Origin: Clostridia bacterium
GTDB taxonomy: Bacteria > Bacillota > Clostridia > Oscillospirales > CAG-272
Assembly (NCBI GenBank): GCA_017503865.1
Contig: JAFVSI010000011.1
Coordinates: forward strand, 1-46,737
Reading direction: 5' to 3'
DNA: 46,737 nucleotides
Below, one piece after another: positions 2 through 30,870 of this stretch. The notes below the pieces were generated by a model. That model saw only the letters and a list, made by a program, of their open reading frames with translations, was not told the DNA's origin and made no database searches. Made by a program: the position numbers and the translations under genes. Position 1 is the stretch's first letter. The number at the start of each line of letters is the position of its first letter.

Positions 2-2485
2 ACAATAGTATTTGGAACAGAGCCTCCTGCAAGCAAGACTTGTAATTATACAGCTCACAACACCGATGATCTTTACTATGCAGGTAAGGATGCAGAGGGC
101 AATAATCTTTACTATCACAGCTGTCCTCTTTGCGGAGATGCTGTGAATGCAAAGACTTTCTCTGAAAAGACTTGGACTGCGGCAACTTGTACCGAGCCCA
201 AGATTTGTACGATTTGCGGTGAGAGCGAGGGGGATGTTCTTGATCATAACTTTACCGGTGCTTGGTCTAGCGATGCAGACGGACACTGGCACGTATGTGC
301 AAACGAGGGCTGTAACGAGACCGATACAAAGGCTGACCACATCTCGAGTGGCGATGCTACTGAGGATGCAGCAGAGGTTTGTACAGAGTGTGGTTATGAG
401 ATAGCTCCCAAGCTCAACCACGTACACAACTATACCGTTCTTAATAATGACGAGACAAACCACTGGTACGAGTGTGCTTGTGGAGTAGCTGACGAGGCAA
501 CTCGCGTAGTTCATACAGGTACTGACGATAACAACTGCGAGACCGAAGTTAAGTGCTCTGCTTGTAACTACGTTGTAGTTGCGGCTAAGACACATGACTA
601 TACAGGTGCTTGGTCTAGCGATGCTGAGGGACACTGGCACGTATGTGCAAATGACGGATGTAACGTAGCTGATACAAAGATTGGTCACACCGACATTGAA
701 GATGATAACGATTGTACAACTGCTGTTAAGTGTTCTGCTTGTGAATTCGTTGTAATCGAGGCTAAGGCTCACGACTTTGACGATGCAACTTGTACAGCCC
801 CCAAGACTTGTACTGTATGCGGAACAACCGAGGGTGAGGCACTTGATCACGACTGGGATGAGGGCAATGTAACAACCGTTGCTTCTTGTACGGTTCCCGG
901 TGTAAAGACATATACTTGTAAGAATGATGCAACCCATACATACACCGAGGATCTTGGAATTGACGAGAATGCTCACGTCTATGACGACGGCTTTGTAACA
1001 ACCAATCCTACATGTATGACAGCGGGTGAAAAGACCTATACATGTTTACTCAATTCTGAGCATAAGAAGTATGAGCCCGTAGACATCGATGATGATGCAC
1101 ATAACTTCAACACTGAAACTCTTGCTAATGATGCAACCGGACACTGGTACGCATGTGCTAATGAGGGCTGCGAGGTTAAGAATGAGTTTAATGCACACAT
1201 CTCGAGTGGAGCTGCAACCGAGGAAACAGCTGAGGTTTGTACAGTATGTGGCTTTGAGATAGCTCCTAAGCTCGATCACGTACACAACTACAACGTTCTT
1301 GATAAGGACGCTACAGACCACTGGTACAAATGTGCTTGTGGTGTAGCTGATGAGGCAACTCGTGAGGCTCACGCAGGTACTGACGATAACAACTGTGCAA
1401 CAGCGGTTAATTGTACTTGTGGTTACGAAATAACAGCAGCTAAGTCTCACGACTACACAGGCGAATGGGTAAAGGATGCAGAAGGTCATGCACATAAGTG
1501 TGCAAACGAGGGCTGTAACGAGACCGATACAAAGGTCGGACATATCTCCGGTGGCGCAGCAACCGAGGAGGCAGCTGAGGTTTGTACAGTGTGTGGATAC
1601 GAGATAACTCCCGCACTTGAACACTCACATAACTACACTGTTCTCGATAAGGACGAGACCGAACACTGGTACAAGTGTTCTTGTGGAGCAGTTGACGAGG
1701 GAACTCGCACGGCTCACACCGGTACTGACGATAACAACTGCGAGTCTGAGGTTGTTTGTAACGTTTGTGGTTACACAATAACCGCTTCAAAGACACACGA
1801 CTACACAGGTGCTTGGAACAGTGATGCTAACGGACATTGGCACGTATGTGCAAATGCCGGCTGTACAGTGACAGAGACAAAGGCTGATCACGTTTACGAT
1901 AACGATGCCGACGCAACTTGTAACGATTGTGGCTTCGAAAGAGAGGTTTCCGGTGGAGACATCGGTGGCGGTGATGATGTTGGCGGTGGAGCCACAGGTT
2001 CTAACTCGCAGACAATCACATCTATTGGCGGTAGCGTAAGCATTGAGGTTACTGCAACCTACAAAGAGGGTGGAACTGAAATAGATGAAACTCCCATTTA
2101 CTCGGTAATCATTACATGGGATGATATGACATTTGAGTACAACACGGCTACAGCAGAGTATGTATGGAATCCCGACACACTCGAGTATGATGAGGTTGAA
2201 AGTTCTAATCCCGGCGGATGGACTGAGCATCAAGCAAAGATTTACATCGAAAACAGATCCAATGCGGCTGTAATTGTTACAGCAATATGGCAGCCTGCTG
2301 AGGGTGTTAACGCATCTCCTGTAATTTCTAAGGATTCCGTCAAACTTGATTCTGCAGTAGGATGTGTAGGAACAGGAAAAACCGCTGAGATCATTGTGTC
2401 TAATCCTACATCCGGATCTATTACAGGCAGTTGTACGCTCGGAACTATCGTTCTTGAAATAAAAGCTGACACTTCAGCTGAATAA
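2..2485 (+). CDS. Cassette A gene 1: giant secreted Cys/His-repeat protein, 5' truncated by window edge
   Basis: The frame is open from base 2, so the GTG at 143 is internal and the true start lies left of the window. About 640 residues consist of degenerate repeats with HWxxCxxxGC, CxxCGYE and HxHNY motifs, giving dozens of paired Cys and His like strings of small zinc-ribbon or disulfide units. Such repeats are common in extracellular proteins of gut Firmicutes. A Gly/Asp linker (bases 1950-2000) leads to a C-terminal module of about 150 residues with TWDDMTFEY, VWNPDTLEY and IENRSNAAVIVTA. That module recurs in the small secreted protein at 3068 and in both matching proteins of cassette B. 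No LPXTG or membrane anchor is present at the C-terminus. The next gene follows after 15 bases. A structural or adhesive surface protein is inferred; no enzyme motif is seen. Confidence 0.85.
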   Translation, partial: TIVFGTEPPASKTCNYTAHNTDDLYYAGKDAEGNNLYYHSCPLCGDAVNAKTFSEKTWTAATCTEPKICTICGESEGDVLDHNFTGAWSSDADGHWHVCANEGCNETDTKADHISSGDATEDAAEVCTECGYEIAPKLNHVHNYTVLNNDETNHWYECACGVADEATRVVHTGTDDNNCETEVKCSACNYVVVAAKTHDYTGAWSSDAEGHWHVCANDGCNVADTKIGHTDIEDDNDCTTAVKCSACEFVVIEAKAHDFDDATCTAPKTCTVCGTTEGEALDHDWDEGNVTTVASCTVPGVKTYTCKNDATHTYTEDLGIDENAHVYDDGFVTTNPTCMTAGEKTYTCLLNSEHKKYEPVDIDDDAHNFNTETLANDATGHWYACANEGCEVKNEFNAHISSGAATEETAEVCTVCGFEIAPKLDHVHNYNVLDKDATDHWYKCACGVADEATREAHAGTDDNNCATAVNCTCGYEITAAKSHDYTGEWVKDAEGHAHKCANEGCNETDTKVGHISGGAATEEAAEVCTVCGYEITPALEHSHNYTVLDKDETEHWYKCSCGAVDEGTRTAHTGTDDNNCESEVVCNVCGYTITASKTHDYTGAWNSDANGHWHVCANAGCTVTETKADHVYDNDADATCNDCGFEREVSGGDIGGGDDVGGGATGSNSQTITSIGGSVSIEVTATYKEGGTEIDETPIYSVIITWDDMTFEYNTATAEYVWNPDTLEYDEVESSNPGGWTEHQAKIYIENRSNAAVIVTAIWQPAEGVNASPVISKDSVKLDSAVGCVGTGKTAEIIVSNPTSGSITGSCTLGTIVLEIKADTSAE
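281..1930 (+). repeat. 348-bp tandem coding repeats in cassette A gene 1
   Basis: The GGACAY(T/C)GG-type landmark occurs at about 281, 629, 1139, 1484 and 1832. The spacings are 348, 510, 345 and 348 bases, so the unit is about 116 codons, with one more divergent segment interposed near 770-1100. Long stretches are near-identical at DNA level, for example around 300-420 and 1160-1280, which suggests recent duplication or gene conversion. Confidence 0.8.
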
Positions 2486-2500
2486 AATTTAGAAAGATTT

Positions 2501-3001
2501 ATGAAGATAATAAAAATACTTATTATTGCAGTTGCATTGATCTTGATTTCGGCACTGATGTTGACGGGTTGTAAATGGGGGGACAAAACTCCCCCCGACT
2601 ACCCCGATCCGCCCGTGGAGTCGAACGCAGAGACCTTTGTTGAAACAGATGCACCAAAGCTTGAAAAGAAAGACGGTGGCGGTGTAGCAGGGCTAACTTA
2701 TAAAACAGATGTATATGTTTATATATCTTCCGGTACAGCTTCATTATATTTTGCAAATCCCAATATTTCGGTGGATAACGTTTTGGTTAAGATTTACGCA
2801 GATGGTTTTAGAATTGCCGAAACGGGAATTCTTGAACCGGGTACGAAGATTACAACGTTGCCTCTAAATGACGTAGGCATTAGAACAATTAAAACTGCCG
2901 GTGATTTTGAAGGGAAGTTCGTAGTTGAATTTTACGACTCGGAAACAAATGAAAAGTCAGTACTTAATACTGAGATACCTATTACCGTAAAGGTAAGATA
3001 A
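2501..3001 (+). CDS. Cassette A gene 2: lipoprotein with single extracellular domain
   Basis: The 166-residue protein starts with a type II signal peptide (MKIIKILIIAVALI, then the lipobox LTGC, Cys24), so it should be lipid-anchored on the outer face of the membrane. A Pro/Asp/Glu-rich linker (residues 29-58) precedes a domain of about 105 residues with VYVYISSGTASLYFANPN, VLVKIYADG and ETGILEPGTKI. The same domain, by eye, ends the 300-residue protein at 28828 and is related to the domain of the lipoprotein at 3765. It sits 15 bases after gene 1 and is probably cotranscribed with it. It may anchor or cap the fibre made by the module proteins. That role is inferred; the family is not recognised. 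Confidence 0.8.
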   Translation: MKIIKILIIAVALILISALMLTGCKWGDKTPPDYPDPPVESNAETFVETDAPKLEKKDGGGVAGLTYKTDVYVYISSGTASLYFANPNISVDNVLVKIYADGFRIAETGILEPGTKITTLPLNDVGIRTIKTAGDFEGKFVVEFYDSETNEKSVLNTEIPITVKVR

Positions 3002-3013
3002 CAAATCTTGATT

Positions 3014-3035
3014 TACAGTACCATAGAGGTACGTA
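3014..3035 (+). other. Small hairpin between cassette A genes 2 and 3
   Basis: GTACC-ATAGA-GGTAC with flanking TAC/GTA pairs and a one-base bulge. It lies just upstream of the strong AGGAGG site (3055-3060) of gene 3. A hairpin in the same relative position occurs in cassette B at 29742-29764. Possible roles are mRNA processing or 5' protection of the gene 3 message. Confidence 0.5.
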
Positions 3036-3067
3036 AAAATAAAAAAATATTTTAGGAGGATTTTATT

Positions 3068-3613
3068 ATGAAAAAAATTCTTGCACTCGTTCTCGCTCTT
3101 ACAATGATCGTTGGTATGAGCATCCCTGCATTTGCTGCAGAAATTACTGAATCCGGTGACAAAGCAACCGTTGGTGACACTGTAACGATTACTGTTAGTG
3201 GTACCGTTAATGACAGTGGTGATAATGTTTACGGAACTACATATTCTGTTGTCGTTGAATGGGATTCTATGACATTTGAGTACACTTCTGAAAAAGAAGT
3301 GTATACTTGGGATGCTGAAAATCTTGAGTATGTTAAGGATACTAGTCAGTCTGTTACTGCTCATTGGGATAAGTCAGAGGCAGAGATTACAGTTACTAAC
3401 AGATCGAATGCTAAAGTTTACGTAACTGCAACTATAACCGGTGATGTCTTTGAGGTTACATCAAGTGCTGAGGTTGCTGCTTGCACAGAAGATACGACTG
3501 AACAGACACTTCCTTCTGAAAAACTTTATGTAAGACCTGTTAAGGCTATCGAGGCGCCCGTAACAGCAACGGTTACACTTACGATTTCCGACCAGGCTCC
3601 TGCTAACTCCTAA
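3068..3613 (+). CDS. Cassette A gene 3: small secreted module protein
   Basis: The 181-residue protein has a clear type I signal peptide (cleavage near AFA-AE, residue 23) and no anchor. The mature part is nearly a single copy of the module that ends gene 1: VVEWDSMTFEY, YTWDAENLEY, ITVTNRSNAKVYVTATI, then a Thr/Val-rich final strand region. A perfect AGGAGG lies 7 bases before the ATG and a strong hairpin follows the gene, which suggests that this is the most highly made product of the cassette. A self-assembling subunit or partner of the giant protein is inferred from the shared module. The family is not recognised; the repeated strand pattern suggests a beta-sandwich. Confidence 0.85.
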   Translation: MKKILALVLALTMIVGMSIPAFAAEITESGDKATVGDTVTITVSGTVNDSGDNVYGTTYSVVVEWDSMTFEYTSEKEVYTWDAENLEYVKDTSQSVTAHWDKSEAEITVTNRSNAKVYVTATITGDVFEVTSSAEVAACTEDTTEQTLPSEKLYVRPVKAIEAPVTATVTLTISDQAPANS

Positions 3614-3659
3614 TGTGATTTAGTAATCCTTAAAAAATTTTTTTAATACGATCAAACGT

Positions 3660-3690
3660 CAAGGCGGGGCCTCGCGCCCTGCCTTGGCCT
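3660..3690 (+). terminator. Strong GC hairpin after cassette A gene 3
   Basis: CAAGGCGGGGC / GCCCTGCCTTG pair over 11 bp (one G-U) with loop CTCGC. The tail (GCCTTTTAC) is poor in T, so it may be a partial terminator or a 3' stabiliser that leaves some read-through into gene 4. The equivalent hairpin in cassette B is at 30321-30348. Confidence 0.7.
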
Positions 3691-3764
3691 TTTACAAATG
3701 CTCATCAATGTTTTGGTATTCGTGAGTGTTTGTAAGAGATTTTAATATTTAAGAGGATGCTAAT

Positions 3765-4244
3765 ATGAAATCAATGACGTTACTTCGTATATTTGCTTTA
3801 ATAATTTCGGTGATGATGTTTTGCCTATGCCTCTCCTCTTGCGGTGGCGAGGAGCTTGAATTTGTTCCGCCCCCATTTGACTCGAGTGCAGTTGTCGGTA
3901 GCCCTGATATAGAAGACCCCGATGCGATTGGTTACACCGAGCTTGATGCAAAGGCGTACAAGGTTGCCGTTTGCGGTCTTGTCAAGCTTTCCGGTGATAG
4001 TGCTGACATATATTTTGCCAATCTCGAGACAAACGAGGTGTGGCTAAAGCTTCGTATAATTGATGAGAAAGGCAATATTCTTGGAGAAACCGGTCTTATA
4101 AAGCCGGGAGAATACGTGAGGAGTATTACTTTCACAGAGAAAGTGCCTAAGGTTGGTACTAAGATAACAATGAAGATAATGGGATATCAGCCTGATACCT
4201 ATTATTCGGCAGGGGAAGTAAAGATTAACACACAAGTGTCATAA
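3765..4244 (+). CDS. Cassette A gene 4: lipoprotein paralogous to 30379-30870
   Basis: The 159-residue protein has a lipoprotein signal ending in LSSC (Cys26) and an extracellular domain. EFVPPPFDSSAVVGSPDIE, KVAVCGLVKL, IYFANLETNEVWLKLRIID, GETGLIKPGEYVRSITF and YQPDTYYSAGE align closely with the cassette B gene 4 product (VPPFEENAIFGKP, GEYVRSVTL, YEPDTYYSMG). The central part also resembles gene 2 (YFAN, ETGxLxPG), so genes 2 and 4 look like an old duplication. The ribosome site is GAGGAT upstream of ATG 3765. A membrane-proximal anchor or assembly factor is inferred. Confidence 0.8.
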   Translation: MKSMTLLRIFALIISVMMFCLCLSSCGGEELEFVPPPFDSSAVVGSPDIEDPDAIGYTELDAKAYKVAVCGLVKLSGDSADIYFANLETNEVWLKLRIIDEKGNILGETGLIKPGEYVRSITFTEKVPKVGTKITMKIMGYQPDTYYSAGEVKINTQVS

Positions 4245-4250
4245 TTTGTT

Positions 4251-4394
4251 TCTTAAAGGAAATTTGAGACTGCTGTTTATTGTACAAGAACTGGAAAAAT
4301 CGGTGCAATCGTTGTATCGATTTCGATATTCGGAACAATCACAGGTGACCGTACGCTCTGAACTATCGTTCATGAGATAAAGGCAGCTGAATAA
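4251..4394 (+). pseudogene. Decayed C-terminal fragment of a cassette A gene 1-type module
   Basis: In one frame from 4266, the bases encode ETAVYC, RTGKIGAIVVS, GTITGDRTL, a TGA stop at 4359, then TIVHEIKAAE and a TAA. This matches the end of gene 1 (DSAVGC, GTGKTAEIIVS, GSITGSCTL, GTIVLEIKA...AE stop) nearly codon for codon, with a Gly codon turned into TGA. No start or upstream body remains. It is the relic of another module gene or a duplicated 3' end. Confidence 0.8.
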
Positions 4395-4417
4395 AGTTTA
4401 ATAACAACTAAAGCTTG

Positions 4418-4456
4418 GCAAGGCGATTCGTTTGAATCGCCTTGCTTTGGTTTTTT
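4418..4456 (+). terminator. Terminator of cassette A
   Basis: Perfect 12-bp stem GCAAGGCGATTC / GAATCGCCTTGC with a GTTT loop, followed by TTTGGTTTTTT. Confidence 0.85.
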
Positions 4457-4493
4457 AATGAATGAGATAAATTTATGGGGTTCTGCAAAAGGA

Positions 4494-4535
4494 AAGGCAG
4501 TGATTTTTTCTTTCGAAAAATCACTGCCTTTTTTA
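4494..4535. terminator. Bidirectional terminator between cassette A and the lactate dehydrogenase operon
   Basis: 15-bp stem AAGGCAGTGATTTTT / AAAAATCACTGCCTT, loop TCTTTCG, T-run on the plus side and TTTCCTTTT on the minus side. It lies 20 bases past the stop of the minus-strand oxidase gene. Confidence 0.8.
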
Positions 4536-4554
4536 TTTAAACGACAGGGAAATA

Positions 4555-5949
4555 TTAAAAGCAAATTTTTCCCGGATTAAGAATGTTCTTTTCGTCAAAG
4601 ACCTTCTTGATGCCCATCATGAGTGCTATCGGGGTTTGGCCATACTGTGATTTCAAATATTTTTTCTTAGCATAACCAATACCGTGCTCGCCCGAAACAA
4701 GACCGCCAAGCTTAGCGGCAGTATCATACATTCGGTCAAATGCGTTATTAAGCACGTTCTCCCATGCCTCGTCGTCCAAGTCGTCACGACAGATGTAAAT
4801 GTGAAGGTTTCCATCACCGGCATGACCAAAGCTTGGAATACGAACTCCAAGCTCTTTTGCAAGCGAGTGAGTGAATTTAATAAACTCGTCGATTTTATTT
4901 ACGGGAACAACAACGTCGCATTCGTCCATTTCGGTTGTTGATGCTTTGATAGCTTCAAGGAAAGCGCCTCTTGCAGACCAAACAGCCTTTTTTCTTTCAT
5001 CTGTATCAACGATATAAGCATCAAGCGCACCAATGGAAAGGCAGAGCTCTGCAACCGTGCTCATATCAGACTCGACCTGAGCCTCGGTATTGCCGTCAAA
5101 GGTGAGAAGAATATAAGCATCGTTCTTTGTATCGGGGAACTTCTTTCCGAGGTAGCTTTCCGAAAAGAGAATGGTGTCGCGAGACATATACTCGATCGCG
5201 GTGGGGATGACCTTTGATGTGAAGATTTTCGGAACCGCCTCAATTGCCGATTTCATATCGGCAAAGGGAACCAACAAGCTGACGGAGAATTTCGGAAGAG
5301 GGATGAGCTTGAGAACCGCCTCAGTGATTATAGCAAGGGTACCCTCTGAACCTATGACAAGGTCTTTCAAGCTATATCCCGACGAGTTTTTTGCAACTGT
5401 GGCACCAAGCTTGAGTATCTCTCCATTTGGCATGACGACTGTGAGGGAACGAACGTAGTCACGTGTTACACCGTACTTTACCGCTCTCATTCCGCCTGCA
5501 TTTGTAGAAATATTGCCGCCGATAGTGGCAGATTTTTCTCCCGGATCAGGTGGGTACAAGAGGTCATTTTCTTCAGCAAAGGCCGCAAGCTCCATAAGAA
5601 GAACACCGGGCTGAACTGTTACGGTAAGAGTGTCGCGGTCAAGAGCAATAATTTTATTCATCTTTGTGGTTTCAAGAAGAATGCCACCCTCAACAGGAAC
5701 GGCTGAGCCGACAAGTCCTGTTCCGCTACCTCTGACTGTTACGGGAATGGAGCGCTCGTATGCGAGCTTCATTATCTCAGAGATTTGCTCGGTAGACGTT
5801 GCTCTGACAAGCACGTCGGGCATTCTTTCAATACCGCCAAGCTCATCGTGAGAGTAATCGGGATTTATAGCGGCACCCACAAGAACATCGCCCTCTCCGA
5901 CGATGCCGCAGAGCGTTTTTATATCGTTTTCGTTAATCTTATTATACAT
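4555..5949 (-). CDS. lctD: FAD-linked D-2-hydroxyacid (lactate/glycolate) dehydrogenase, Etf-coupled
   Basis: The 464-residue protein is a complete GlcD-type flavoenzyme. It has an N-terminal FAD-binding (PCMH) half with [13 protein letters not shown] and [17 protein letters not shown], and a C-terminal FAD-oxidase half with [11 protein letters not shown] and [17 protein letters not shown]. The two genes upstream encode EtfB and EtfA, the arrangement of the Acetobacterium-type LctBCD complex. In that complex, lactate oxidation is coupled to NAD+ reduction at the cost of reduced ferredoxin (established for that family). The start has a GGGGGAG site and lies 2 bases after the etfA stop. The substrate could also be glycolate or another 2-hydroxyacid; no lactate permease is adjacent. 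Confidence 0.88.
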
Positions 5950-5951
5950 TA

Positions 5952-7136
5952 TTACTCCCCCTTGATTTTGTTTATAAGCTTAGGAAGGATTTCTGCCACG
6001 TCACCAACGACACAGTAGTGTGCTATGTCAAAAATAGGGGCGGTATTGCACGTGTTGACGGCAACTATACAGTCCGATGACTTCATACCTGCGGCAAACT
6101 GTACGGCACCCGATATTCCAAGGCAGATTATTAACTTCGGTTTTACAGTTCTGCCGGAGAGACCTATCTGATGCTTTGCATCGAATATATTTTCCTCAAC
6201 GAGAGGTCTTGTGCAAGCAACAACACCACCAAGCATATTTGCAAGTGCTTCTGCTTGTTGCCTTATCGCATCGCTTGCGGCACCTCTGCCTACTGCAACG
6301 ATTACGTCTGCTTCGGCAATGTCTATATCTTTGGGCTTTGCGAAGGATTTGATGACGTCTATTGCCGACATGGTCATTTTATCTGTTACCGTCATATTAA
6401 CGATTTTACCTGTGGGGTTGTCCATAGGTGTCGGCTCTGTAAATACCTTGTATCTTACAGTGCAAAACTGAGGTCTTGTTGCGGGAGTAATTATCTGTGC
6501 CATAATGTTTCCGCCAAAGGCAGGACGTATCTGCACAAGGTCGGTATTCTTTTTCATTTCAAGCACTGTGCAGTCAGCGGTAAGTCCTGTGCGGCAACGT
6601 GCGGCAACACGAGGTGCGAGTTGACGTCCGAGATTGGTAGCGCCAACGAGTATGCTTGAGGGCTTGAATTTGTCAATGAAGTCACAAAAAGCCGAGGTGT
6701 ATGGCTCTATTCTGAAGTCTGCAAAGGCAGGGTCATCATATACAAAGACCTTGTCAGCTCCAAAGCGCAGCAGCTCGTTCGCACACTCATCAAGGTTGGT
6801 TCCGATTGCAATAGCATATACGGGGTGGTCTATAACGTTTGCCAGCTCGCGGGCTTTGCCAAGCAGCTCAAGAGTTACTTTGTGTATCTTACCGCCCGAG
6901 CAATCGGCATAAACGCAAACACCGCGCCAAAGAGATTTGTCGATTTCCTTGACATCATCTTCAATAAAGTCTACAAGACCCTGCCCCTTCTTTACGCACA
7001 TTTTACACATTTTACAGGCGGACGTAATGTCAAGGCTTCCGTCCTTGTATGTAATTGCATTGAAGGGACAAATTTTTATAAGAGAGAGGGCCTTTTCCTC
7101 TGTTACGAGATTTTTGTTGATTATAAGCTTTCCCAT
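5952..7136 (-). CDS. etfA: Electron transfer flavoprotein alpha subunit with ferredoxin-like N-terminus
   Basis: The 394-residue protein is longer than a plain EtfA (about 320). The first 75 residues carry Cys23 (ICPFNAI) and Cys41, Cys44 and Cys47 (CKMCKMC), enough for one [4Fe-4S] cluster, as in the LctC/EtfA subunits of confurcating lactate dehydrogenases. The ETF alpha body follows ([53 protein letters not shown]). The C-terminal FAD site includes [25 protein letters not shown] and [21 protein letters not shown]. The ribosome site GGAG is 8 bases before the ATG. It forms a heterodimer with the etfB product and passes electrons between the dehydrogenase, NAD and ferredoxin. Confidence 0.92.
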
Positions 7137-7148
7137 TTCGATTTCTCC

Positions 7149-7937
7149 TTATATCATTTTTTTCGTACGAAGAAGCTCGAATATCGCGGTTGCCTGTTCG
7201 TCGGACGTGCCGCTTATAGAGTATTTGTTGTCGTTTTTCTCGGGCGGGAAGATCCTTTCAACCTGAGTAGCAGAGCCTGCAAGACCGTAGTGCTTCTCGT
7301 CCTGGTCGTCAAAATCGTTAAATGAGAAAAATTCAACGGCATTATCGCTGATGTTCTTTTTTATCTTGTAAGAGGGAAGTCTTGGTGTGTTTATATCAGC
7401 ATCTACCGATATAAGGCAGGGAAGAGAAACTCTCATTTTCACATTCTTGTCGTCAAGAGATGCTGTGACGTAGATATGACCGTCTTTTATTTCATCAATG
7501 CTGAGTACGTTTGAGACGTTAGGGATTGAGAGATATTCGGAAATTTCAGCTCCAACCTGAGCAGTGTCCCCGTCGGTCGTCTGCTTGCCGCAAATTATAA
7601 GATCGTATTCACCGAATTTCTGTATTCCCTGGGAGAGTGTGTATGCTGTTGCAAGCACGTCGGCTCCCGCAAATTTTCTGTCAGAGAGAACTGCGCCGTG
7701 CGATGCTCCCATTGCAATGGTTTCATTAATGACCGCCTTTGCTTGTGGTGGGCCCATTGTTATGCAGTCAACGTTTCCCCCATACTGCTCTGCAAGACAG
7801 AGCGCGGTCTCTATTCCGTAGAGATCATAAGGGTTGATCTTGCTCTGAATACCGTTTCTTTTTAGAACGCCCGTTGCCGGATCGACTTCGACGTTGTTTG
7901 ATCCGGGGACTTGTTTTACACAAACTAAGATGTTCAT
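7149..7937 (-). CDS. etfB: Electron transfer flavoprotein beta subunit
   Basis: The start is set at ATG 7937 (MNILVCVKQVPGSNNVEVD), four codons inside the longest frame, because GGAG lies 7 bases before it and this is the normal EtfB N-terminus. The 262 residues include NPYDLYGIETALCLAEQYGG, CITMGPPQAKAVINETIAMGASHGAVLSDRKFAGADVLATAYTL-type nucleotide-binding segments and CGKQTTDGDTAQVG. It is the first gene of the operon with etfA 12 bases downstream, and a promoter is visible at 8051-8080. The product carries the FAD at the NAD-reactive bifurcation site in this family. Confidence 0.92.
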   Translation of the reverse strand: MNILVCVKQVPGSNNVEVDPATGVLKRNGIQSKINPYDLYGIETALCLAEQYGGNVDCITMGPPQAKAVINETIAMGASHGAVLSDRKFAGADVLATAYTLSQGIQKFGEYDLIICGKQTTDGDTAQVGAEISEYLSIPNVSNVLSIDEIKDGHIYVTASLDDKNVKMRVSLPCLISVDADINTPRLPSYKIKKNISDNAVEFFSFNDFDDQDEKHYGLAGSATQVERIFPPEKNDNKYSISGTSDEQATAIFELLRTKKMI

Positions 7938-10933: not shown

Positions 10934-10977
10934 TAGATGTTACATTGGCTCCTTTTGCACACCGGAAAGGAGTTAAT

Positions 10978-19146: not shown

Positions 19147-19149
19147 GTT

Positions 19150-22781: not shown

Positions 22782-23177
22782 AAAAAAAGAGCGAAACGGA
22801 TTGGCGTGATACTCTTATCGGAGTATCACGCCAGTTCTATTCGCCTGTGGCGAGTGATATTGCTACGCAGTGATATTCGGCTCGCACCGAGTGGTATTCG
22901 CTTCGCGAGTTTCAGGGCGAATAGAATACCACTGAAGCCGCAAGGCTTCAATATCACTATTGCGGTAGCAATAATATCACTCTTTGCGAAAGCAAAGAAT
23001 ATCACTAAAAAAGCAGAAAAAGAGAGAGCTTCACGGAATTTTGTAACCGCGTTACTCTCTCTTCTGTTTTTATTGCCAGTTTCGCTTTTGTTTAACAAAT
23101 GCACAGGGCTATGCCCATACCCCTTATAAAATTTCTCCGATAAGGACATCACGCTTTTCGTTTCGCTCTTTTTTGCA
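22782..23177. mobile_element. MITE-like element with long terminal inverted repeats and nested palindromes
   Basis: The left end (22782-22822) and the reverse complement of the right end (23135-23177) match over about 40 bases: A-run, GAGCGAAACG, GCGTGAT, CTTATCGGAG. The left end also holds a perfect hairpin GGCGTGATACTC / GAGTATCACGCC (22803-22832). The inside has GTGATATT or GTGGTATT at 22854, 22870 and 22891, mirrored by AATACCAC or AATATCAC at 22925, 22950, 22973 and 22998. Each is separated by a small GC hairpin such as GAAGCCGCAAGGCTTC. No protein is encoded. It fills the gap before cassette B. Confidence 0.75.
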
Positions 23178-23397: not shown

Positions 23398-26300
23398 ATG
23401 GCAAAAAGAATTTTTTCGCTGTTTTTGGCTTTGTCTATAATTCTTAGCTGCTTTGTCTTTTCTCCTGCAGTGGGTGCTCTTGAAGTACTCAGCCACGAGG
23501 ATTTTGTCGCCGTTTACGGTGCTCACATAAATTATAACAGTAAGATTTCCGCAAATCCCGACGGAACGTTTAAGCTTGACGTTGATATTTATTCATCGTA
23601 TTCGGTATCGCCCGAGAACGTAAATATCCTTTCCTCTGAGGACGATTATTACGTTGTTGACAGAAACGGACGCTATCTTGTTGAGCTTTGGGGAGCTGAC
23701 GGAGCTACGGCTGTCGGTAAAGGCGGTGCGGGCGGCTACGTTTACGGCATAATAGAGCTTAAAGAGGGCGATACCCTTTATTACACACTCGGCGGTGAGG
23801 GAAGTAAAACAAGCGTTGCAGGACAGGGCGGCGGAGCTAACGGCGGCGGTGGCTACGGAGAAAACGGAAGCACAACTGTCGGTGGCGGTGGCGGATATTC
23901 GGCACTCTTCCTTTTTGACAGCGACGATTTCAGCAACAGATACCTTGATGCTGACGGTCACGTAAAAGACAAGCTTACATCAGCGGACAGAACCTCGAAA
24001 TATATAATGATTGCAGGCGGCGGTGGCGGTGGCGGTTCATACGGAGCTGACTCGAATGCAACTGCTGACGGCGGAGCGGGCGGATACATAGGCTCGACCT
24101 CGGGTGTTCTTGGAGACGGCTATGACGTTTCGGGAACCTTTTTCTCGGGACTTGACGGACGTTCCTCGGGTACGTCCACGCAGTACGTCGGTAAGGGCGG
24201 AACGAACGTTCCCGGCGAGCGAGTAGGAACTTGGCTCGATTGGGGTATGAGCGACCAGGCAAACGACTGGAAGGGAACTTACAATTTAAACACAGAGGGC
24301 GGAGCAGGCGGCTCTGGTAACTATCGAGGCGGAGCAGGCGGTGCAGGCTTTTGCGGTGGCTCGGGCGGAGTTATGTCGAGCGTCATACTTGCCAACAATG
24401 TTGGCGGTGGCGGTGGCGGCTCGTCATTCGTTTCATCTGTTTTCTCTTATGAAGATCTCACCGACAGAGACGACAGCTTCCGTATAGGAAGAGAAAACGG
24501 CAAGGGCGGCGGTGAAATGCACCTTGTCTACCTTGACGAGCAGGACGACGATTATCTTAAGGATATGGACATTACGCTTGCACGTACACCTTACTTTTAC
24601 GTAAGTGACATCAGTGCAACGGGTAAGGTTTGGAACAGTGAGACCGACGAGTATGAGGACAAGACCTATGCTATCGATTATCGCTTTGTGGAGTACGCAA
24701 CGGATCCTGAGGTAATCGAGTTTATTATTGAGGGCGTATCTCTCGCTCCCGAAAAGGACGGAAACGGACGGGATCATCTCGATCTTATTTTGACCTTCCA
24801 CCCGAAGGACGAGTTTGCGGGCGGTAATAACGTACCGCTGCTTAAGGACGACCTTATAGTTTGTACGCCTTCGGACACAAATTACGATGCGGTAGAACTG
24901 CCCTTAAAGAATTATTGCGGATACGTAAACGTTCCGCTGAATTTTGACGTGTCCCCCGTAAACCACACTCCTCAGGGACTTGACCCTGAGAACGTAAATC
25001 ACAAGGTCACGTCGCTTTACAACGACCTTTACGCTTCGGTGCGTTCTCAGCCTGACGCGGATTGGAGATACAGATTTATCGAGACTATAGGGAATCACGT
25101 TGTTACCGATGAGAGTGGTGTTGAGATCACGACCGAGACAGTGTCTCCCGATGAGACGACTCGTTTCCCGATAAGTCTTACGGTAGTGCCAAAAGAGCCA
25201 CCTGTCAAGAATTACGCAAGGTTAAGTGCGAGGGTGTACGAAAAGACCTTTGTGGGCGTTTCGGTCATTACTATCGCCGGTTCGGGAATGGATACACTTA
25301 ACAGTAACGTTCTCGTATATAACAAGGCCCTTTCATTTGCGTTAGAGGAAGAGGCCTATACACTTACTCTTCACGTAAGTTCTGACTCGAGTGGATCTAT
25401 TGCAGACAACAGTAAAATTCCAACGTTTAATTCTATAAGCTATGCCGACGGAACTCGCGAGAGTACCGTTACCATACCGATAACCGGTACTTATACCATA
25501 AGTATTAAGGGCGGCAATGGTGGAACGGGAGGTTCGGTTAATATGCTTGGTACCAAGGGTGGTGCCGGAGGTGCCGGAGGAAATATTACCGCTACCTACA
25601 TTCTTAAGGCAGGAACAACCCTTAGATTCTTTGCGGGAGCAAATGCACACGACGCGTCTGCCGCTTATGCAGGAGCTGACGGAGGAGAAGCCTCGTACGT
25701 TGCAGTGCTTGACAGCGCGGCATCGGGACAGATAAAGTATTATCTTATGATCGCCTCAGGCGGAGGCGGCGGAGGCGGTGCTTACCTGTGGACCAAAGGT
25801 AAGGACGGAACAACTCCCACTCAAATTAGCAATTCCTATACGGGCAGCATCGAAAGCTACAACGGAGGAAAAGGCTCAAACGGTGGCTCGGGCGGCGGTG
25901 CAAGCGGAAGTGCTGTTTCTAACTTCGTTTACAACGGAACAGCCGACGAAAACGTAACCTACAGCACCTCGGGTACAGCATCGCTTTCGGGGGCGGGCGG
26001 CTCAGCAAGCCTTGTGTGTAAGTCTATAGGTGCGGGCGGAAACGGTAACAGCGAAAACCTCAAGAGCTATACCTTCGAAGCAGATATTGCAAAATACTTT
26101 GAGGTCAAGGACGTTTCGCTTAACGTAATAAAGGCTGAGAACGGTTCTTTGTCAAATAAGCAAATAAGTGAGGTCAAGGACGCAAACGGTGAGCTTTTGT
26201 ATACAAGAGTCACCGCAACAGTAGAATTAGACCCCTATTTAATGGGTGAGAGCGAGATACTTAACGAGGGAATCGCCTCGTCGACGGGGGATTCCGATAA

Positions 26301-28806
26301 TGACATCTATAAGGTCGAATACGACCTCAGTATTATTACCTCTCCACGTGAGGGATTCCTCGGCGGAAACGACGTTATGTTCCTCTACGCGAGCGGAGAC
26401 AATCAGCTAAAGACAGGTATGAGGATCGCCCAAGAGGGAATGTCGGACTTTATAAACGTTGACGAGAGCAGAGTCAAGGACTACGCAAACGTAGATATTC
26501 CCGAGAGCATTATATCGTCAATTACTGCATTTGAGGTGCAGGATAAGGTTTATATTTACGGCGGAGAGCCCGTAATAAAAAATACACTTGTAAAAACACT
26601 TGAGGGCATGCCGACTCTTTCTGGCTGGCAGGCTGATTACGTACAGCTTGTAGATCCCCGTGAGGACACCACACCTCTCACACCCGATAAGACGACCGAT
26701 TATGACGTGTCGGTGGGGGTTGCTCCTAAGTACAGCGATCCTTATGCTGATACTAAGGACGCCGTCTCAGCAAGACTTATCACTAAAACGGCTACCGTGC
26801 ATACGGACGCAGAGGTAACCTTTGAGTTTGAGGGAGTTGAGCTTGTAGACCTTCAGCCTAATGCTGAGGGAAAATACCTTATCGAGTTCAGCGAGGCAGG
26901 ATACGCTGCCGCCGACTATAATTTCAAGATAAAAACTGAAGATTTAGGTGAGGAGCATCACCATCACTTGCCGAGCGAGATAAGTATAACGGTTGGGGAC
27001 ACCCTTCTTTCTGTGGGTGACGGATACGAATATAATCGTATTGATGACGACAATGCAACGGTAAGTATTTTTGCAAACAAGATAAACGGAAACGTAACAG
27101 TAAGGGTTATTGCTTGTCACGAATTTGTAACTCTTTATTACGTGTACCAAAATGAGCCGGAGAGTAATGAGTCAACTACGCTCGAGCTTCAGCGCCATTT
27201 TGGCGAAGCTATCAATATAGAGGCGGATTTCGTGGGAGCAGGAAAAACTCTCCCAAAAGATGATTACGAGCATTACGACCTCGTTTGGGATTACGGCCTT
27301 GAGGACGGTGCGGTTCTCGAAACTATGCCAAAGCAAAACGTTTGGATAATTGGAACTTACGTACCCAAGACCTATGAAATAACGGTAGATTATAAGTACG
27401 AAAACGGTGATAAGGCTGCCGATAGTGTTACAAAAGAGGTAAGCTATAACAGTGAATATCATATCACCTCGCCTATAATCGAGGGATTTTCTCCCGATAA
27501 AACGACCGTCAGCGGTCTGGCAACGAGAAATGAGACCTTCGAGGTAATCTACTCCTCGACCGAGGGACAGCTTAGAATAGTGTGTCTCTATAAAGATAGC
27601 GGCGAGGTCATAACCGACCTTAGCGACGCATATTTCACCGACGGAGAGTATACCGTTACTCTTGCGACGGGAAGAGAATATAATGTTACGATGCCGACAC
27701 TTGCAGGGTTCGTGCCCGACAGGGATACCGTCTCGGGAACGATGACGGCGGCAGGTATTACTGTTTACGTATATTACGGTGCAGAGACTTACACAGTCAC
27801 CTTTGACGATGGAGTCGACGCGACCGAGAACGTCACAAAGCAGGTAAAATACGGCGAGACCTACGGCTACAATGCCGAGACGGGTACGTATGACGGTCTT
27901 CCCACACCTATCAGGGTCGGATATCAGTTCGAAGGCTGGGCGTTTAACAACAGAGCAGTTGACGAAAACACCACCGTAAATGCAACGAGTGACCACACGC
28001 TTGTGGCAAGATGGAAGGCTATGACATTCACTCTTACCGTCAACTACAAGAAGGACGATGGAACAGAGGCGTATGCAAGTCTTACGCGTGTTCTTGATTT
28101 TGAGTCCACGTACTCGTTTGATTCGCCAAGTATAAGAGGATATACCCCCGATATTGCAACGGTTTCGGGAAGTGTACCCGCACAGAATACGGTAGTTACT
28201 GTAACTTATAACAGAAATACATATACTGTTACAGTACAGTTCCTTTATTCTAACAATTCAAAGGATGCATCTCCCGCAGTACAGCTTTCCCTCAAGCACG
28301 GTGATACCTATGAGGTAGACGTTCCGCAAATAAGCGGTTATTATACAAGTAACGACGGGGAAACTGTTACGGGAACGGTAGATGCGGCAAACGTCGATAT
28401 AGTTATTTACTACTATAAGGATGAGCCCAAAATGAACTTTACCGTTAGCTGGTCGGGTATGAACTTTATGTACAATAAGGGCACGTGGAATCCCGAAAAG
28501 CTTGACTACGAGGGTGGATATTTTATCCCCGTTGATGACAGTAATAAGGTAACGGTAAAGAATGAGGCAACGTCAAATGTCCAGATAGTTGCTGAAATCA
28601 ACTTTACACCTGCAAGTGAGTATGATACCGTTGATGGATACTTTACTGCATCGAATCAATCGACTGCCGAGAAGATAACGTCAATGAGTATTGCCGTGGG
28701 AAAAGAAAAAACGGCATATCTCCACCTTGACGGTGAGCTTGATGAGAGAAATATTCCCCAAAACTTTACTATAGGCACCTGTACCGTAACGGTACGAGGC
28801 GGCTGA
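23398..28806 (+). CDS. Cassette B gene 1: giant secreted glycine-rich repeat protein
   Basis: The 1802-residue protein has a signal peptide (residues 1-27, cleavage near VGA) and a GAGGGGG ribosome site. It has two glycine-rich beta domains (about residues 95-355 and 700-890) of the type VELWGADGATAVGKGGAGGY with runs of GGGGG. Mixed beta-rich regions come next. Residues 1320-1680 hold MucBP/InlB-like repeats (ITVDYKYENGDKAADSVTKE; VGYQFEGWAFNNRAV...LVARW). The last 125 residues are the cassette module: VSWSGMNFMY, GTWNPEKLDY, VTVKNEATSNVQIVAEI, FTIGTCTVTV. There is no LPXTG and no C-terminal membrane segment. It is the counterpart of the protein ending at 2485, with a different repeat body but the same terminal module. 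An adhesin or fibre role is inferred. Confidence 0.9.
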   Translation: MAKRIFSLFLALSIILSCFVFSPAVGALEVLSHEDFVAVYGAHINYNSKISANPDGTFKLDVDIYSSYSVSPENVNILSSEDDYYVVDRNGRYLVELWGADGATAVGKGGAGGYVYGIIELKEGDTLYYTLGGEGSKTSVAGQGGGANGGGGYGENGSTTVGGGGGYSALFLFDSDDFSNRYLDADGHVKDKLTSADRTSKYIMIAGGGGGGGSYGADSNATADGGAGGYIGSTSGVLGDGYDVSGTFFSGLDGRSSGTSTQYVGKGGTNVPGERVGTWLDWGMSDQANDWKGTYNLNTEGGAGGSGNYRGGAGGAGFCGGSGGVMSSVILANNVGGGGGGSSFVSSVFSYEDLTDRDDSFRIGRENGKGGGEMHLVYLDEQDDDYLKDMDITLARTPYFYVSDISATGKVWNSETDEYEDKTYAIDYRFVEYATDPEVIEFIIEGVSLAPEKDGNGRDHLDLILTFHPKDEFAGGNNVPLLKDDLIVCTPSDTNYDAVELPLKNYCGYVNVPLNFDVSPVNHTPQGLDPENVNHKVTSLYNDLYASVRSQPDADWRYRFIETIGNHVVTDESGVEITTETVSPDETTRFPISLTVVPKEPPVKNYARLSARVYEKTFVGVSVITIAGSGMDTLNSNVLVYNKALSFALEEEAYTLTLHVSSDSSGSIADNSKIPTFNSISYADGTRESTVTIPITGTYTISIKGGNGGTGGSVNMLGTKGGAGGAGGNITATYILKAGTTLRFFAGANAHDASAAYAGADGGEASYVAVLDSAASGQIKYYLMIASGGGGGGGAYLWTKGKDGTTPTQISNSYTGSIESYNGGKGSNGGSGGGASGSAVSNFVYNGTADENVTYSTSGTASLSGAGGSASLVCKSIGAGGNGNSENLKSYTFEADIAKYFEVKDVSLNVIKAENGSLSNKQISEVKDANGELLYTRVTATVELDPYLMGESEILNEGIASSTGDSDNDIYKVEYDLSIITSPREGFLGGNDVMFLYASGDNQLKTGMRIAQEGMSDFINVDESRVKDYANVDIPESIISSITAFEVQDKVYIYGGEPVIKNTLVKTLEGMPTLSGWQADYVQLVDPREDTTPLTPDKTTDYDVSVGVAPKYSDPYADTKDAVSARLITKTATVHTDAEVTFEFEGVELVDLQPNAEGKYLIEFSEAGYAAADYNFKIKTEDLGEEHHHHLPSEISITVGDTLLSVGDGYEYNRIDDDNATVSIFANKINGNVTVRVIACHEFVTLYYVYQNEPESNESTTLELQRHFGEAINIEADFVGAGKTLPKDDYEHYDLVWDYGLEDGAVLETMPKQNVWIIGTYVPKTYEITVDYKYENGDKAADSVTKEVSYNSEYHITSPIIEGFSPDKTTVSGLATRNETFEVIYSSTEGQLRIVCLYKDSGEVITDLSDAYFTDGEYTVTLATGREYNVTMPTLAGFVPDRDTVSGTMTAAGITVYVYYGAETYTVTFDDGVDATENVTKQVKYGETYGYNAETGTYDGLPTPIRVGYQFEGWAFNNRAVDENTTVNATSDHTLVARWKAMTFTLTVNYKKDDGTEAYASLTRVLDFESTYSFDSPSIRGYTPDIATVSGSVPAQNTVVTVTYNRNTYTVTVQFLYSNNSKDASPAVQLSLKHGDTYEVDVPQISGYYTSNDGETVTGTVDAANVDIVIYYYKDEPKMNFTVSWSGMNFMYNKGTWNPEKLDYEGGYFIPVDDSNKVTVKNEATSNVQIVAEINFTPASEYDTVDGYFTASNQSTAEKITSMSIAVGKEKTAYLHLDGELDERNIPQNFTIGTCTVTVRGG

Positions 28807-28827
28807 TAATGTGAAAGGAGAAAGGCT

Positions 28828-29730
28828 ATGGCCGGATTTAGTCACGTATTCAGACAGGATTACGATAAGCGAGTCAAAGTCGGCAACGAGTACGTATTTT
28901 GCTACTCAAAGAAAAAGCTGAAGGAGCTTTATCCCGAAAACGATTACAATCTTTCGGGTGAGGCGAGAAAGGGAACGGCAAAAAGCCAGGAGTCCTTTGA
29001 TGCAAGGCAGGCAAAGAAGCTTGCAAGGCTCAAGGAGAAGGGACTTAAGGAGTCTGACGTTGAGACTTTAAAGATCGGTGATCTTAAGATAGGAAACAGT
29101 GTTCTCAGCGTCTATCCCGAGGGAACTAATAATAAGATTTTAGGGAAGACCGACGGCTTCGTCTGCGTTTCCGAGGGCAACTTTATAGCTCTCCACGCAA
29201 GCCGTGTACCGTTCCTTGCAATCATTTTTTCAATGTCAGCGGCAATAATAGGTGCAACCTTACTTACGGTGAGCCTTTTAATGAATCCCGCTCCCCCCGA
29301 AATTGTTGAGCCCGATAATCCTTTGCCTGTTGTTGATCCGCTGGCAAGGCCTATGGAGGATGATGATAGTGAGAAGATATCGTCTGAAAAAGGTGGAGGG
29401 TCTATAACTATAGCATTTAGAGGTCCTATATACGTGTACCTTGATCAAAATATAGCAACACTTACATATGGAAACCCCAATGCGTCAAATCAAGATGTTG
29501 TTGTTGAAATTTATCTTAAAGATGAAGGCAACGAGTATTTTCTCGGGCGTTCCGGTCGAGTACCTTCCGGTAGTGCTCTTTCACAAATATCAATAGCTGA
29601 CCGCGAAGCAGGAATTGCTACTGGGTATTACAAGGCTAAACTTTATTTTCATGCCTACGAACCCAATACAGGTGACAAAGCCATTGTTGTTTCAAGTGTC
29701 AACGATGTTGATTTGATTGTAGTACAATAA
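28828..29730 (+). CDS. Cassette B gene 2: membrane-anchored protein with gene-2 type domain
   Basis: The 300-residue protein has a cytoplasmic N-terminal part (residues 1-127, with basic KKLARLKEKGLKESDVETLKIGDLKIG and LGKTDGFVCVSEGNFIALHAS). One membrane segment (128-152) and a Pro/Asp/Glu linker (153-190) follow. The extracellular domain (191-300) reads IYVYLDQNIATLTYGNPNASNQDVVVEIYL, LGRSGRVPSGSALSQI. That domain matches the cassette A lipoprotein at 2501 (VYVYISSGTASLYFANPN). Cassette B has therefore replaced a lipid anchor with a transmembrane anchor and a cytosolic domain. AAAGGAG precedes the ATG, 21 bases after gene 1. Confidence 0.82.
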   Translation: MAGFSHVFRQDYDKRVKVGNEYVFCYSKKKLKELYPENDYNLSGEARKGTAKSQESFDARQAKKLARLKEKGLKESDVETLKIGDLKIGNSVLSVYPEGTNNKILGKTDGFVCVSEGNFIALHASRVPFLAIIFSMSAAIIGATLLTVSLLMNPAPPEIVEPDNPLPVVDPLARPMEDDDSEKISSEKGGGSITIAFRGPIYVYLDQNIATLTYGNPNASNQDVVVEIYLKDEGNEYFLGRSGRVPSGSALSQISIADREAGIATGYYKAKLYFHAYEPNTGDKAIVVSSVNDVDLIVVQ

Positions 29731-29741
29731 ATCGTATATTG

Positions 29742-29764
29742 CAAAGGTGATAAAAACATCTTTG
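29742..29764 (+). other. Small hairpin between cassette B genes 2 and 3
   Basis: CAAAGGTG and CATCTTTG pair (one G-U) around ATAAAAA, upstream of the AAGAAAGGA site of gene 3. It occupies the same place as the hairpin at 3014-3035 in cassette A. Confidence 0.5.
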
Positions 29765-29804
29765 TGAAAATAATTAATTTTTTTATAAAGAAAGGAAAAA
29801 AAAC

Positions 29805-30305
29805 ATGAAAAAACTTTTAGCAATTACCCTGGCGTGCCTTATGATGCTTACTCTCTGTGCGAGTGTTTCCGCAGCGGATGGTGATGTAAATGTCACTGTA
29901 ACAATCGAAGACGTTGTGCCTATTCTTATGACCGAAGTATCTTGGGACAGCTTTGATTTTACCTATACCTTCAAGGAAACTTGGACAGAAGGTTCGTTTG
30001 AAGTTGGTTATGACGAAGTGGGATGGAATAAACCGAGTGCTACTGTTACCGTTGCAAACAAGTCCGCTGGTGATGTAAACGTAAAGATATCTTACGAACC
30101 CAAAGGTGATGTTGAGCTTCCCGGAACAGTTGATTTCGCTATGACGGCTGTTAATCAGGATCTTTCGACTGCTGAAGGCAGATCTGAATTTGATTCGGTT
30201 TCTGCTACCTTAACTGTATCCGGTGTACCTACGGTAGATTCTGCTGATACATTTAATTCAACTTTGGTTGGAAATGTTGTTGTAGAAATTGTAGAAAAGT
30301 GGTAA
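29805..30305 (+). CDS. Cassette B gene 3: small secreted module protein
   Basis: The 166-residue protein has a type I signal peptide (cleavage near VSA-AD, residue 23). The mature part begins GDVNVTVTIEDVVP and carries the module pattern VSWDSFDFTYTF, a Trp-rich second segment, ATVTVANKSAGDVNVKISY and a final strand NVVVEIVEKW. It corresponds in position and fold pattern to the protein at 3068. It has no anchor of its own. A strong hairpin follows the stop. A small, abundant extracellular subunit is inferred. Confidence 0.82.
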   Translation: MKKLLAITLACLMMLTLCASVSAADGDVNVTVTIEDVVPILMTEVSWDSFDFTYTFKETWTEGSFEVGYDEVGWNKPSATVTVANKSAGDVNVKISYEPKGDVELPGTVDFAMTAVNQDLSTAEGRSEFDSVSATLTVSGVPTVDSADTFNSTLVGNVVVEIVEKW

Positions 30306-30320
30306 TATCAACTAAAACAA

Positions 30321-30348
30321 CAAGCACACGGCAAAAGCCGTGTGCTTG
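30321..30348 (+). terminator. Strong hairpin after cassette B gene 3
   Basis: CAAGCACACGGC / GCCGTGTGCTTG, perfect 12 bp with an AAAA loop. Only a weak T tract follows (ATCTTTTTC about 10 bases later). It is placed exactly like the hairpin at 3660 in cassette A. Confidence 0.7.
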
Positions 30349-30378
30349 TGACTTAAAAATCTTTTTCTCGGAGTGCGT

Positions 30379-30870
30379 ATGGATAAGCAACAGAAAATTA
30401 CAATTTTAATATTTGGTGCAGTTTTGCTTCTTGCACTTATAGTGCTTTTCTCGGTGCTTTTCGGCAGAGAAAGAGAGATTCAAGTGCTTGAGTTTGAGGT
30501 ACCGCCCTTTGAGGAGAATGCTATTTTTGGCAAGCCTTATGTTGAGGCAAGTCTTTCCTACCGTGATATTGACGTAAACGGCAACTTTGTCTTTTCTCTT
30601 TGCGGAATGCCAAGGGTTGAGGACGGAGAGCTTGTCTTGTACTTCTCGTCAAACGAGAAGAACGTACCTTGGCTGCTTATAAAGGTCTATGACACTGACG
30701 GAAACGAGATAGGAAAAAGCGGAATGCTTCGTGCGGGTGAATACGTAAGAAGCGTGACTCTTTCCACTGTCCCTGAGGACTCGGAGGTGAGAGTGAAGAT
30801 AGTCTCATACGAGCCTGACACCTACTACAGCATGGGCACCGCCTCTGCAACACTTGAATTTAGTAAATAA
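30379..30870 (+). CDS. Cassette B gene 4: membrane-anchored paralogue of 3765-4244
   Basis: ATG 30379 is preferred to GTG 30373 because GGAG lies 5 bases before it. The 163-residue product has one N-terminal membrane segment (residues 7-29, ITILIFGAVLLLALIVLFSVL) with no lipobox. The extracellular domain (VLEFEVPPFEENAIFGKP, FVFSLCGMPRV, LVLYFSSNEKNVPWLLIKVYD, KSGMLRAGEYVRSVTL, YEPDTYYSMG) aligns with the cassette A gene 4 lipoprotein along its whole length. It ends the cassette and is followed by a terminator. An anchoring or assembly role is inferred from context. Confidence 0.82.
   Translation: MDKQQKITILIFGAVLLLALIVLFSVLFGREREIQVLEFEVPPFEENAIFGKPYVEASLSYRDIDVNGNFVFSLCGMPRVEDGELVLYFSSNEKNVPWLLIKVYDTDGNEIGKSGMLRAGEYVRSVTLSTVPEDSEVRVKIVSYEPDTYYSMGTASATLEFSK

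What the first reader, a model, noticed from the sequence alone, without database searches (positions are those of the whole stretch)
2..30870. Two paralogous four-gene surface cassettes in the same order (2-4244 and 23398-30870)
Each unit is: giant secreted repeat protein, anchored protein, small secreted protein, second anchored protein. Gene 2 aligns with gene 2 (VYVYISSGTASLYFANPN versus IYVYLDQNIATLTYGNPN). Gene 4 aligns with gene 4 (GEYVRSITF...YQPDTYYSAGE versus GEYVRSVTL...YEPDTYYSMG). Genes 1 and 3 share one module in both units. The giant proteins have entirely different repeat bodies (Cys/His units against glycine-rich plus MucBP/InlB-like), so the conserved assembly part appears to carry interchangeable surface tips. 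No sortase, chaperone-usher or LPXTG is visible. I know of no named system with this layout. It may be a fibre or adhesin display system of spore-forming Clostridia.
Basis: partly seen in the sequence, partly recalled or inferred. Interest (0 to 1): 0.9.

Follow-up and report, generated by a model that had tools for sequence, protein, structure and literature searches.

The report
Clostridial surface-display gene cassette
Gut Clostridia carry a conserved run of genes that probably builds a protein complex on the cell surface to display very large, variable proteins; its protein families match no known family in the searches made, but its layout strongly resembles a known system of lactic acid bacteria.

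Summary
The window has two four-gene cassettes; the genome has a third on contig C85, with two giants in tandem. Each cassette is built from two families: W, a secreted domain of about 130 residues (at the C-terminus of giants and alone as gene 3), and B, a membrane-anchored domain (genes 2 and 4, homologous to each other). Of 53 relatives' loci with at least 4 kb upstream of gene 4, 48 have B1 and at least one W on the same strand.

In 21 of 32 type I units with room, a fifth secreted gene follows B2. Its C-terminus is a swapped anchor (by eye 20 of 28 LPXTG-like; others membrane helix, choline-binding repeats, dockerin). The window's cassettes lack it and no sortase was detected in the genome.

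The layout works like Csc/WxL clusters, but profile tests link neither W to WxL nor B to WxLIP (DUF916/DUF3324). Best reading: a non-covalent surface-display complex in which W docks variable giants on anchored B proteins.

The parts
2..2485 (+). Cassette 1 giant, C-terminal part only (cut by the contig start): Cys/His repeats, then W domain at about 2024-2470
   Evidence: W domain of the small-protein type in the tree
2501..3001 (+). Cassette 1 B1, putative lipoprotein (lipobox LTGC by eye)
3068..3613 (+). Cassette 1 small W protein, signal peptide then W domain
3765..4244 (+). Cassette 1 B2, putative lipoprotein (lipobox LSSC by eye)
4417..4446 (+). Terminator-like stem of 13 pairs after cassette 1
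   Evidence: consensus scan only
23398..28806 (+). Cassette 2 giant: signal peptide, ALK/LTK glycine-rich domain, MucBP and List_Bact_rpt repeats, C-terminal W domain at about 28378-28800
28828..29730 (+). Cassette 2 B1 (type II): N-terminal part of about 130 residues, membrane helix, B domain
29805..30305 (+). Cassette 2 small W protein
30320..30349 (.). Perfect 13-bp inverted repeat between small W and B2
30373..30870 (+). Cassette 2 B2 with N-terminal membrane helix

Best explanation
Each cassette encodes one cell-surface display complex. B1 and B2 are related extracellular domains tethered to the membrane by a lipid or a single helix. W is a secreted docking or assembly domain: small W proteins consist of it alone, and giants carry it, mostly at the C-terminus, so that their variable bodies point outwards. 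W domains most likely bind non-covalently to B1 and to each other, holding several small W proteins and one or two giants at the surface without sortase. Where a fifth protein is present it adds a tie to the wall. Shown: the homologies, the gene order, the fifth gene with differing C-termini, no detectable sortase here. Read from sequence by eye: signal peptides, lipoboxes, membrane helices. Inferred: W-B1 and W-W binding, excess of small W, outward display.
For: Order and strand kept in 48 of 53 loci found with B2 alone. W is shared by giants and small proteins and is within about 35 residues of the C-terminus in 56 of 65 large W proteins. B proteins are membrane-anchored by sequence. A fifth gene with a conserved part and differing anchors follows B2 in 21 of 32 type I units. 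Large W and B1 genes nearly abut (median 8 nt), and lead W distances track B1 in 16 type I units (rho 0.49, 0 of 500 permutations). Same layout as Csc/WxL, proposed to form surface complexes.
Against: B2 distances do not track W (rho 0.17-0.20; 47 and 62 of 500 permutations), so the role of B2 is unexplained. There is no control for the host tree. Five of 53 loci lack B1 or W. The LPXTG-like signals were judged by eye; Pfam's anchor model matched only 1 of 28.
Confidence: 0.6

Rival explanations
1. A true fibre: small W subunits polymerise, perhaps by exchange of their N-terminal strand, the giant is the tip, and the B proteins are base or assembly factors. This is a stronger form of the best explanation.
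For: One to five small W genes per unit. W domains split by position in the tree: 27 of 29 lead W fall in one group (support 80, few columns). A stem of 9 bp or more lies between the last W and B2 in 14 of 36 long spacers against 1 of 35 between B1 and W, which fits high expression of small W. A short N-terminal motif occurs in 48 of 110 small W and 11 of 28 fifth proteins against 2 of 21 other secreted ORFs.
Against: Some proteins between B1 and B2 carry C-terminal cargo after W, awkward for a polymer. Similar stems occur in 9 of 37 W-W and 4 of 8 lead W-B1 spacers. The motif match is weak (profile probability 24). No structure or microscopy.
Confidence: 0.25
2. W and B are extremely diverged WxL and WxLIP (DUF916/DUF3324) domains, so this is a Csc/WxL cluster that sequence methods cannot see.
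For: Nearly identical layout. WxLIP domains are predicted Ig-like beta-sandwiches, a fold B may share (my guess).
Against: Profile comparison W vs WxL finds only the signal peptide or nothing; B vs WxLIP nothing. Pfam reports no WxLIP domain in 53 B2 and 45 B1 members and one at E=0.018 among 76 W. My WxL and WxLIP profiles held only 5 and 2 sequences.
Confidence: 0.2
3. Unlinked adhesin genes that share a common wall- or glycan-binding domain, without forming one complex.
For: W is found on many different bodies; no interaction was tested.
Against: Fixed order and strand with two related anchored proteins over genomes labelled Oscillospiraceae, Lachnospiraceae and others, found with B2 alone.
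Confidence: 0.1

Closest known systems
Csc / WxL clusters (CscA-D; WxL with WxLIP = DUF916-DUF3324) of Lactobacillus, Enterococcus, Listeria
   Same: Small secreted proteins made of one domain (1-4 CscB), a large protein with variable N-terminus and the same domain at its C-terminus (CscC), a membrane-anchored partner (CscA), and an LPXTG protein (CscD) in one cluster; several clusters per genome (passages of PMC1534035).
   Different: W is not detectably WxL and B not WxLIP. Two related anchored proteins (B1, B2) instead of one. Anchor by lipobox or N-terminal helix, not a C-terminal helix. The fifth protein is larger, has a conserved domain and is missing here.
Sortase-assembled pili of Gram-positive bacteria (recalled)
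   Same: Surface operon with repeated subunit-like proteins and a large adhesin.
   Different: No sortase detected in this genome and no sorting motif on W proteins.
Cellulosome cohesin-dockerin display
   Same: Varied cargo is thought to be held by a shared docking domain; a dockerin ends the fifth protein in 2 of 28.
   Different: Neither cohesin nor dockerin was reported for B members or in the W list, of which 25 of 51 families were shown.

Membership tests
Csc/WxL cluster | WxL domain (PF13731) in the small and large secreted proteins | tested here: not met
   Absent from the window proteins and from the 25 of 51 families shown for 76 W members; profile comparison gives only signal peptide or no match. 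No WxL in this genome. The WxL profile held 5 sequences.
Csc/WxL cluster | WxLIP partner with DUF916 and DUF3324 and a membrane helix | tested here: not met
   All families listed for 53 B2 and 45 B1 members lack them; profile comparison negative (2-sequence profile).
Csc/WxL cluster | Layout: large protein with the shared C-terminal domain, 1-4 small ones, an anchored partner | tested here: met
   48 of 53 loci have B1 and W before B2, 42 of 53 a W protein of 300 aa or more. Some units have five or more small W.
Csc/WxL cluster | LPXTG protein (CscD) | tested here: not met
   Not met in the three cassettes of this genome. A possible counterpart follows B2 in 21 of 32 type I units, with LPXTG-like ends by eye in 20 of 28 aligned but a Pfam anchor match in 1 of 28.
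Csc/WxL cluster | Anchored partner binds the secreted domain | not testable with these tools
   Structure prediction switched off; only co-variation was measured.
Sortase pilus | Sortase gene and sorting signals on subunits | tested here: not met
   No sortase match in this genome, which is about 95% complete; no motif on W proteins.
TasA/camelysin fibre | Peptidase_M73/TasA-type domain and signal peptidase SipW | tested here: inconclusive
   Domain not among the families reported (25 of 51 shown); SipW was not searched.

The most novel reading that the evidence does not exclude
A widespread, undescribed non-covalent surface fibre of gut Clostridia: small W subunits polymerise through an N-terminal strand, a position-specific W domain caps the fibre with giants of many kinds, B proteins form the membrane base, and lineages tie the base to the wall with whatever anchor they own.
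Probability: 0.25. Interest if true: 0.8.

Novelty: new variant of a known kind. Interest (0 to 1): 0.62.

Why it matters
Gut and rumen Clostridia must hold on to fibre, mucus and each other, yet this genome has no detectable sortase. A conserved cassette with its own docking and anchoring families would explain how such bacteria display giant adhesins and enzymes, would give a role to many unnamed surface proteins, and would be a case of independent or extremely diverged invention of the WxL-type architecture.

Tried and rejected
PDB sequence searches with the W, B1 and B2 profiles gave antibody chains matched mainly at the signal peptide, designed proteins and short or low-complexity matches; rejected as chance. 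One WxLIP_PGBD match at E=0.018 in 1 of 76 W members was treated as chance. The idea that the cassette is two W-B pairs (large W with B1, small W with B2) got support only for the first pair. The idea of a recent insertion beside sigF: in 15 fetched same-genus regions next to sigF no W, B1 or B2 was found, but spoVT does not lie beside sigF there either, so no clean empty site was shown. No B2 match (query: B2 of cassette 1) and no W match (query: one W of L045) on 72,556 plasmid records. In viral contigs 47 stretches matched the B2 patterns and none was confirmed.

Rows dropped before counts; seven loci that repeat contigs, plus the window and C85 loci, were left out; of the 82 loci left, 53 had 4 kb of room, 24 less, 1 was odd and 4 had no six-frame hit; some genomes give more than one locus; 7 of 65 large W proteins left out to meet a size limit; 4 of 29 near-identical units dropped, then 16 type I units used for permutations. 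Sortase link: ten cassette genomes were examined; in two of them (G074, G021) the contig ends within 400 nt after B2, so the fifth gene cannot be judged. Counting only the rest gives 2 of 2 with it having a sortase and 0 of 6 without it (1 in 28 by hand; one search gave p=0.02 with all eight). One of the two sortase hits (G108) is marginal.

Literature: searches (open-licence PMC only); judged from the listed titles and abstract starts, which for searches are 6 of 5,662 and 8 of 30 papers. None of the listed ones described this cassette.
Full report
What is there. The window is a complete 46,737-base contig (C52) of a 2.14 Mb genome in 90 contigs. BLASTP confirms gene 2 with gene 2, gene 4 with gene 4, and one shared domain in genes 1 and 3. 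It also shows that genes 2 and 4 are related to each other, confirmed by profiles (probability 98.4; mature parts 97.6). A cassette is therefore made from two families. I call them W (consensus with W..M.F.Y, WNP and N.SN) and B. W and B show no relation to each other. No Pfam or NCBIfam family covers either in the window. Over relatives the scans gave only weak or signal-peptide matches: 76 W (Pfam, 25 of 51 families shown; NCBIfam), 53 B2 and 45 B1.

A third cassette. Searching the genome with B2 and W finds a third cassette on contig C85 in the same order, with two giants in front: one of at least 3102 aa, cut by the contig end, and one of 4460 aa, which holds a DUF4886 domain. Cassettes 1 and 3 are close (B1 63% identical; B2 77%). 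Cassette 2 is a different subtype. The W domain of the cassette 1 giant is nearest to the small W of cassette 3 (56% identity, support 99), which suggests that W domains move between giants and small proteins.

How widespread. In the same family 15 of 146 genomes match B2 at E 1e-3 or better, ten of them below 1e-12; three other species of the genus do not match. At class level 8 of 391 match at 1e-5. A scan of one genome per species gave 79 loci, mostly metagenome-assembled genomes labelled Clostridia, Oscillospiraceae or Lachnospiraceae, many from gut samples of ruminants or rabbits by title, and a few named isolates such as Robinsoniella peoriensis. A human faecal record named Bacteriophage sp. 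also carries W, B1, two W, B2 and a fifth gene, with regulator-like genes beside them; I think that label is wrong.

The order is conserved. A six-frame search with iterated profiles and a count show that of 53 distinct loci with at least 4 kb upstream of B2, 48 have B1 and at least one W upstream on the same strand. The exceptions are L046, L048, L076 (no B1), L081 (no W) and L092 (neither). A W protein of 300 aa or more was detected in 42 of 53; L095 and L098 have one below threshold that is plain by eye. Loci were fetched with B2 alone, so W and B1 were not selected for, but some genomes give more than one locus. Sorting 82 units by B1 length and order gives four layouts: type I, B1 under 240 aa (34 units, including cassettes 1 and 3 of this genome); type II, B1 of 240-310 aa (13, including cassette 2); type III, long B1 first, then the giant and five more W (5); type IV, W proteins, then long B1 and B2 (11). 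One unit was other and 18 could not be classed.

The giants. W lies within about 35 residues of the C-terminus in 56 of 65 W proteins of 300 aa or more. Proteins between B1 and B2 are W alone, W with an N-terminal extension, or W followed by C-terminal cargo. Pfam over 58 large W proteins finds List_Bact_rpt in 9, LRR_5 in 5, InlB-like repeats in 5, ALK/LTK glycine-rich in 5, MucBP in 4, GLUG in 3 and CBM26 in 1. Bodies vary but are not freely exchanged: dense glycine runs mark 6 of 9 type II lead giants (two of the other three are cut) and 0 of 20 type I.

A fifth gene. Comparing neighbours finds one recurrent gene directly after B2. In 28 loci it lies close to B2, overlapping it by exactly 4 nt in 13. 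With a profile it is present in 21 of 32 type I units with room, 9 of 18 unclassed, and 0 of 12, 4, 9 and 1 of types II, III, IV and other. It has a conserved N-terminal domain and a C-terminus that differs by lineage: of 28 aligned, by eye 20 end in an LPXTG-like signal with a membrane helix, 3 in a helix alone, 2 in choline-binding repeats, 2 in a dockerin and 1 in an Ig-like domain. Pfam confirms the choline-binding and dockerin ends but its LPXTG model matches only 1 of 28, so these signals are loose. A conserved part with differing anchors is what one expects of a wall tie for a complex. None of the three cassettes of this genome has it, and no sortase is detected in the genome. Among cassette genomes in which it can be judged, both with the fifth gene have a sortase match (one marginal) and none of six without it does; two more without a sortase cannot be judged.

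Expression anatomy. Large W and B1 genes nearly abut (median 8 nt), while B1-W (median 65) and last W-B2 (median 82) are spaced. A stem of 9 bp or more lies between the last W and B2 in 14 of 36 spacers of 40 nt or more, against 1 of 35 B1-W spacers, 9 of 37 W-W and 4 of 8 lead W-B1 spacers. In cassette 2 it is a perfect 13-bp repeat at 30320-30349; in cassette 1 the best stem is 7 bp. This fits small W being made in excess, which is an inference.

Co-variation. Over 16 type I units, lead W distances track B1 (rho 0.49, 0 of 500 permutations) and W proteins track each other (0.58-0.66), but W does not track B2 (0.17-0.20; 47 and 62 of 500). This favours B1 as the partner of W and leaves B2 unexplained. 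There is no control for the host tree.

How it most likely works. Secreted W proteins dock on the membrane-tethered B1, and probably on each other, and so hold giants with outward-facing bodies at the surface without sortase; the fifth protein adds a wall tie where present. Whether small W forms a fibre is open. For: several small W genes; position-specific W groups (27 of 29 lead W in one group, modest support 80, few columns); and an N-terminal motif shared by small W (48 of 110) and the fifth protein (11 of 28) against 2 of 21 other secreted ORFs, with a weak profile match.

Comparison with the known. The Csc clusters hold one CscA (membrane-anchored, DUF916), 1-4 small CscB (WxL alone), usually one large CscC (variable N-terminus, WxL) and an LPXTG CscD (passages of PMC1534035). 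WxLIP is proposed to bind WxL, with a strand inserted, from AlphaFold2 models (abstract and first part of Results of PMC10599100). WxL is described as a peptidoglycan-binding display domain (passages of PMC5817068). The cassette works like this but fails the sequence tests of membership: W vs WxL and B vs WxLIP give no signal, with the caveat that my WxL and WxLIP profiles were thin (5 and 2 sequences). I therefore call it a new variant of a known kind, not a member.

Verdict. Observation confirmed and extended; interpretation partly supported. It is not an artefact, and more than a pair of ordinary repeat proteins.

Noticed in passing
window 10945-12153: A tyrosine recombinase (phage integrase family) lies between the two cassettes, beside two ORFs without a clear family (8324-8977, 9496-10524): a possible small mobile element.
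   Followed up: no
L158 (MT837052.1), 1-7861: A GenBank record named Bacteriophage sp. from human faeces carries a W-B1-W-W-B2-fifth gene cassette with regulator-like genes; it looks like a bacterial fragment that was mislabelled.
   Followed up: partly
L100 8416, L105 6295, L108 8356 and other type III/IV loci: Long B1 proteins begin with GLUG-like repeats (by eye) before the B domain; if the membrane helix lies between, this repeat part would be inside the cell, which would be odd.
   Followed up: no
L080 8913-9767 and 10384-11277; L084 2539-3396 and 4012-4905: Here the W protein ends in what looks by eye like a starch-binding module, and the fifth protein ends in a dockerin: a hint of a link to a cellulosome-like system.
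   Followed up: partly
L086 1184, L056 3395, L043 3695, L100 4774 and others: Response-regulator-like and kinase-like genes recur near some cassettes (9 and 12 loci in two clusters, at varying distance).
   Followed up: no
window 22443-22775 and 22806-23129: Two small ORFs directly upstream of cassette 2 without any Pfam match.
   Followed up: no
window 40565-43831: A 1088-aa ORF with no Pfam family above its cut-off.
   Followed up: no
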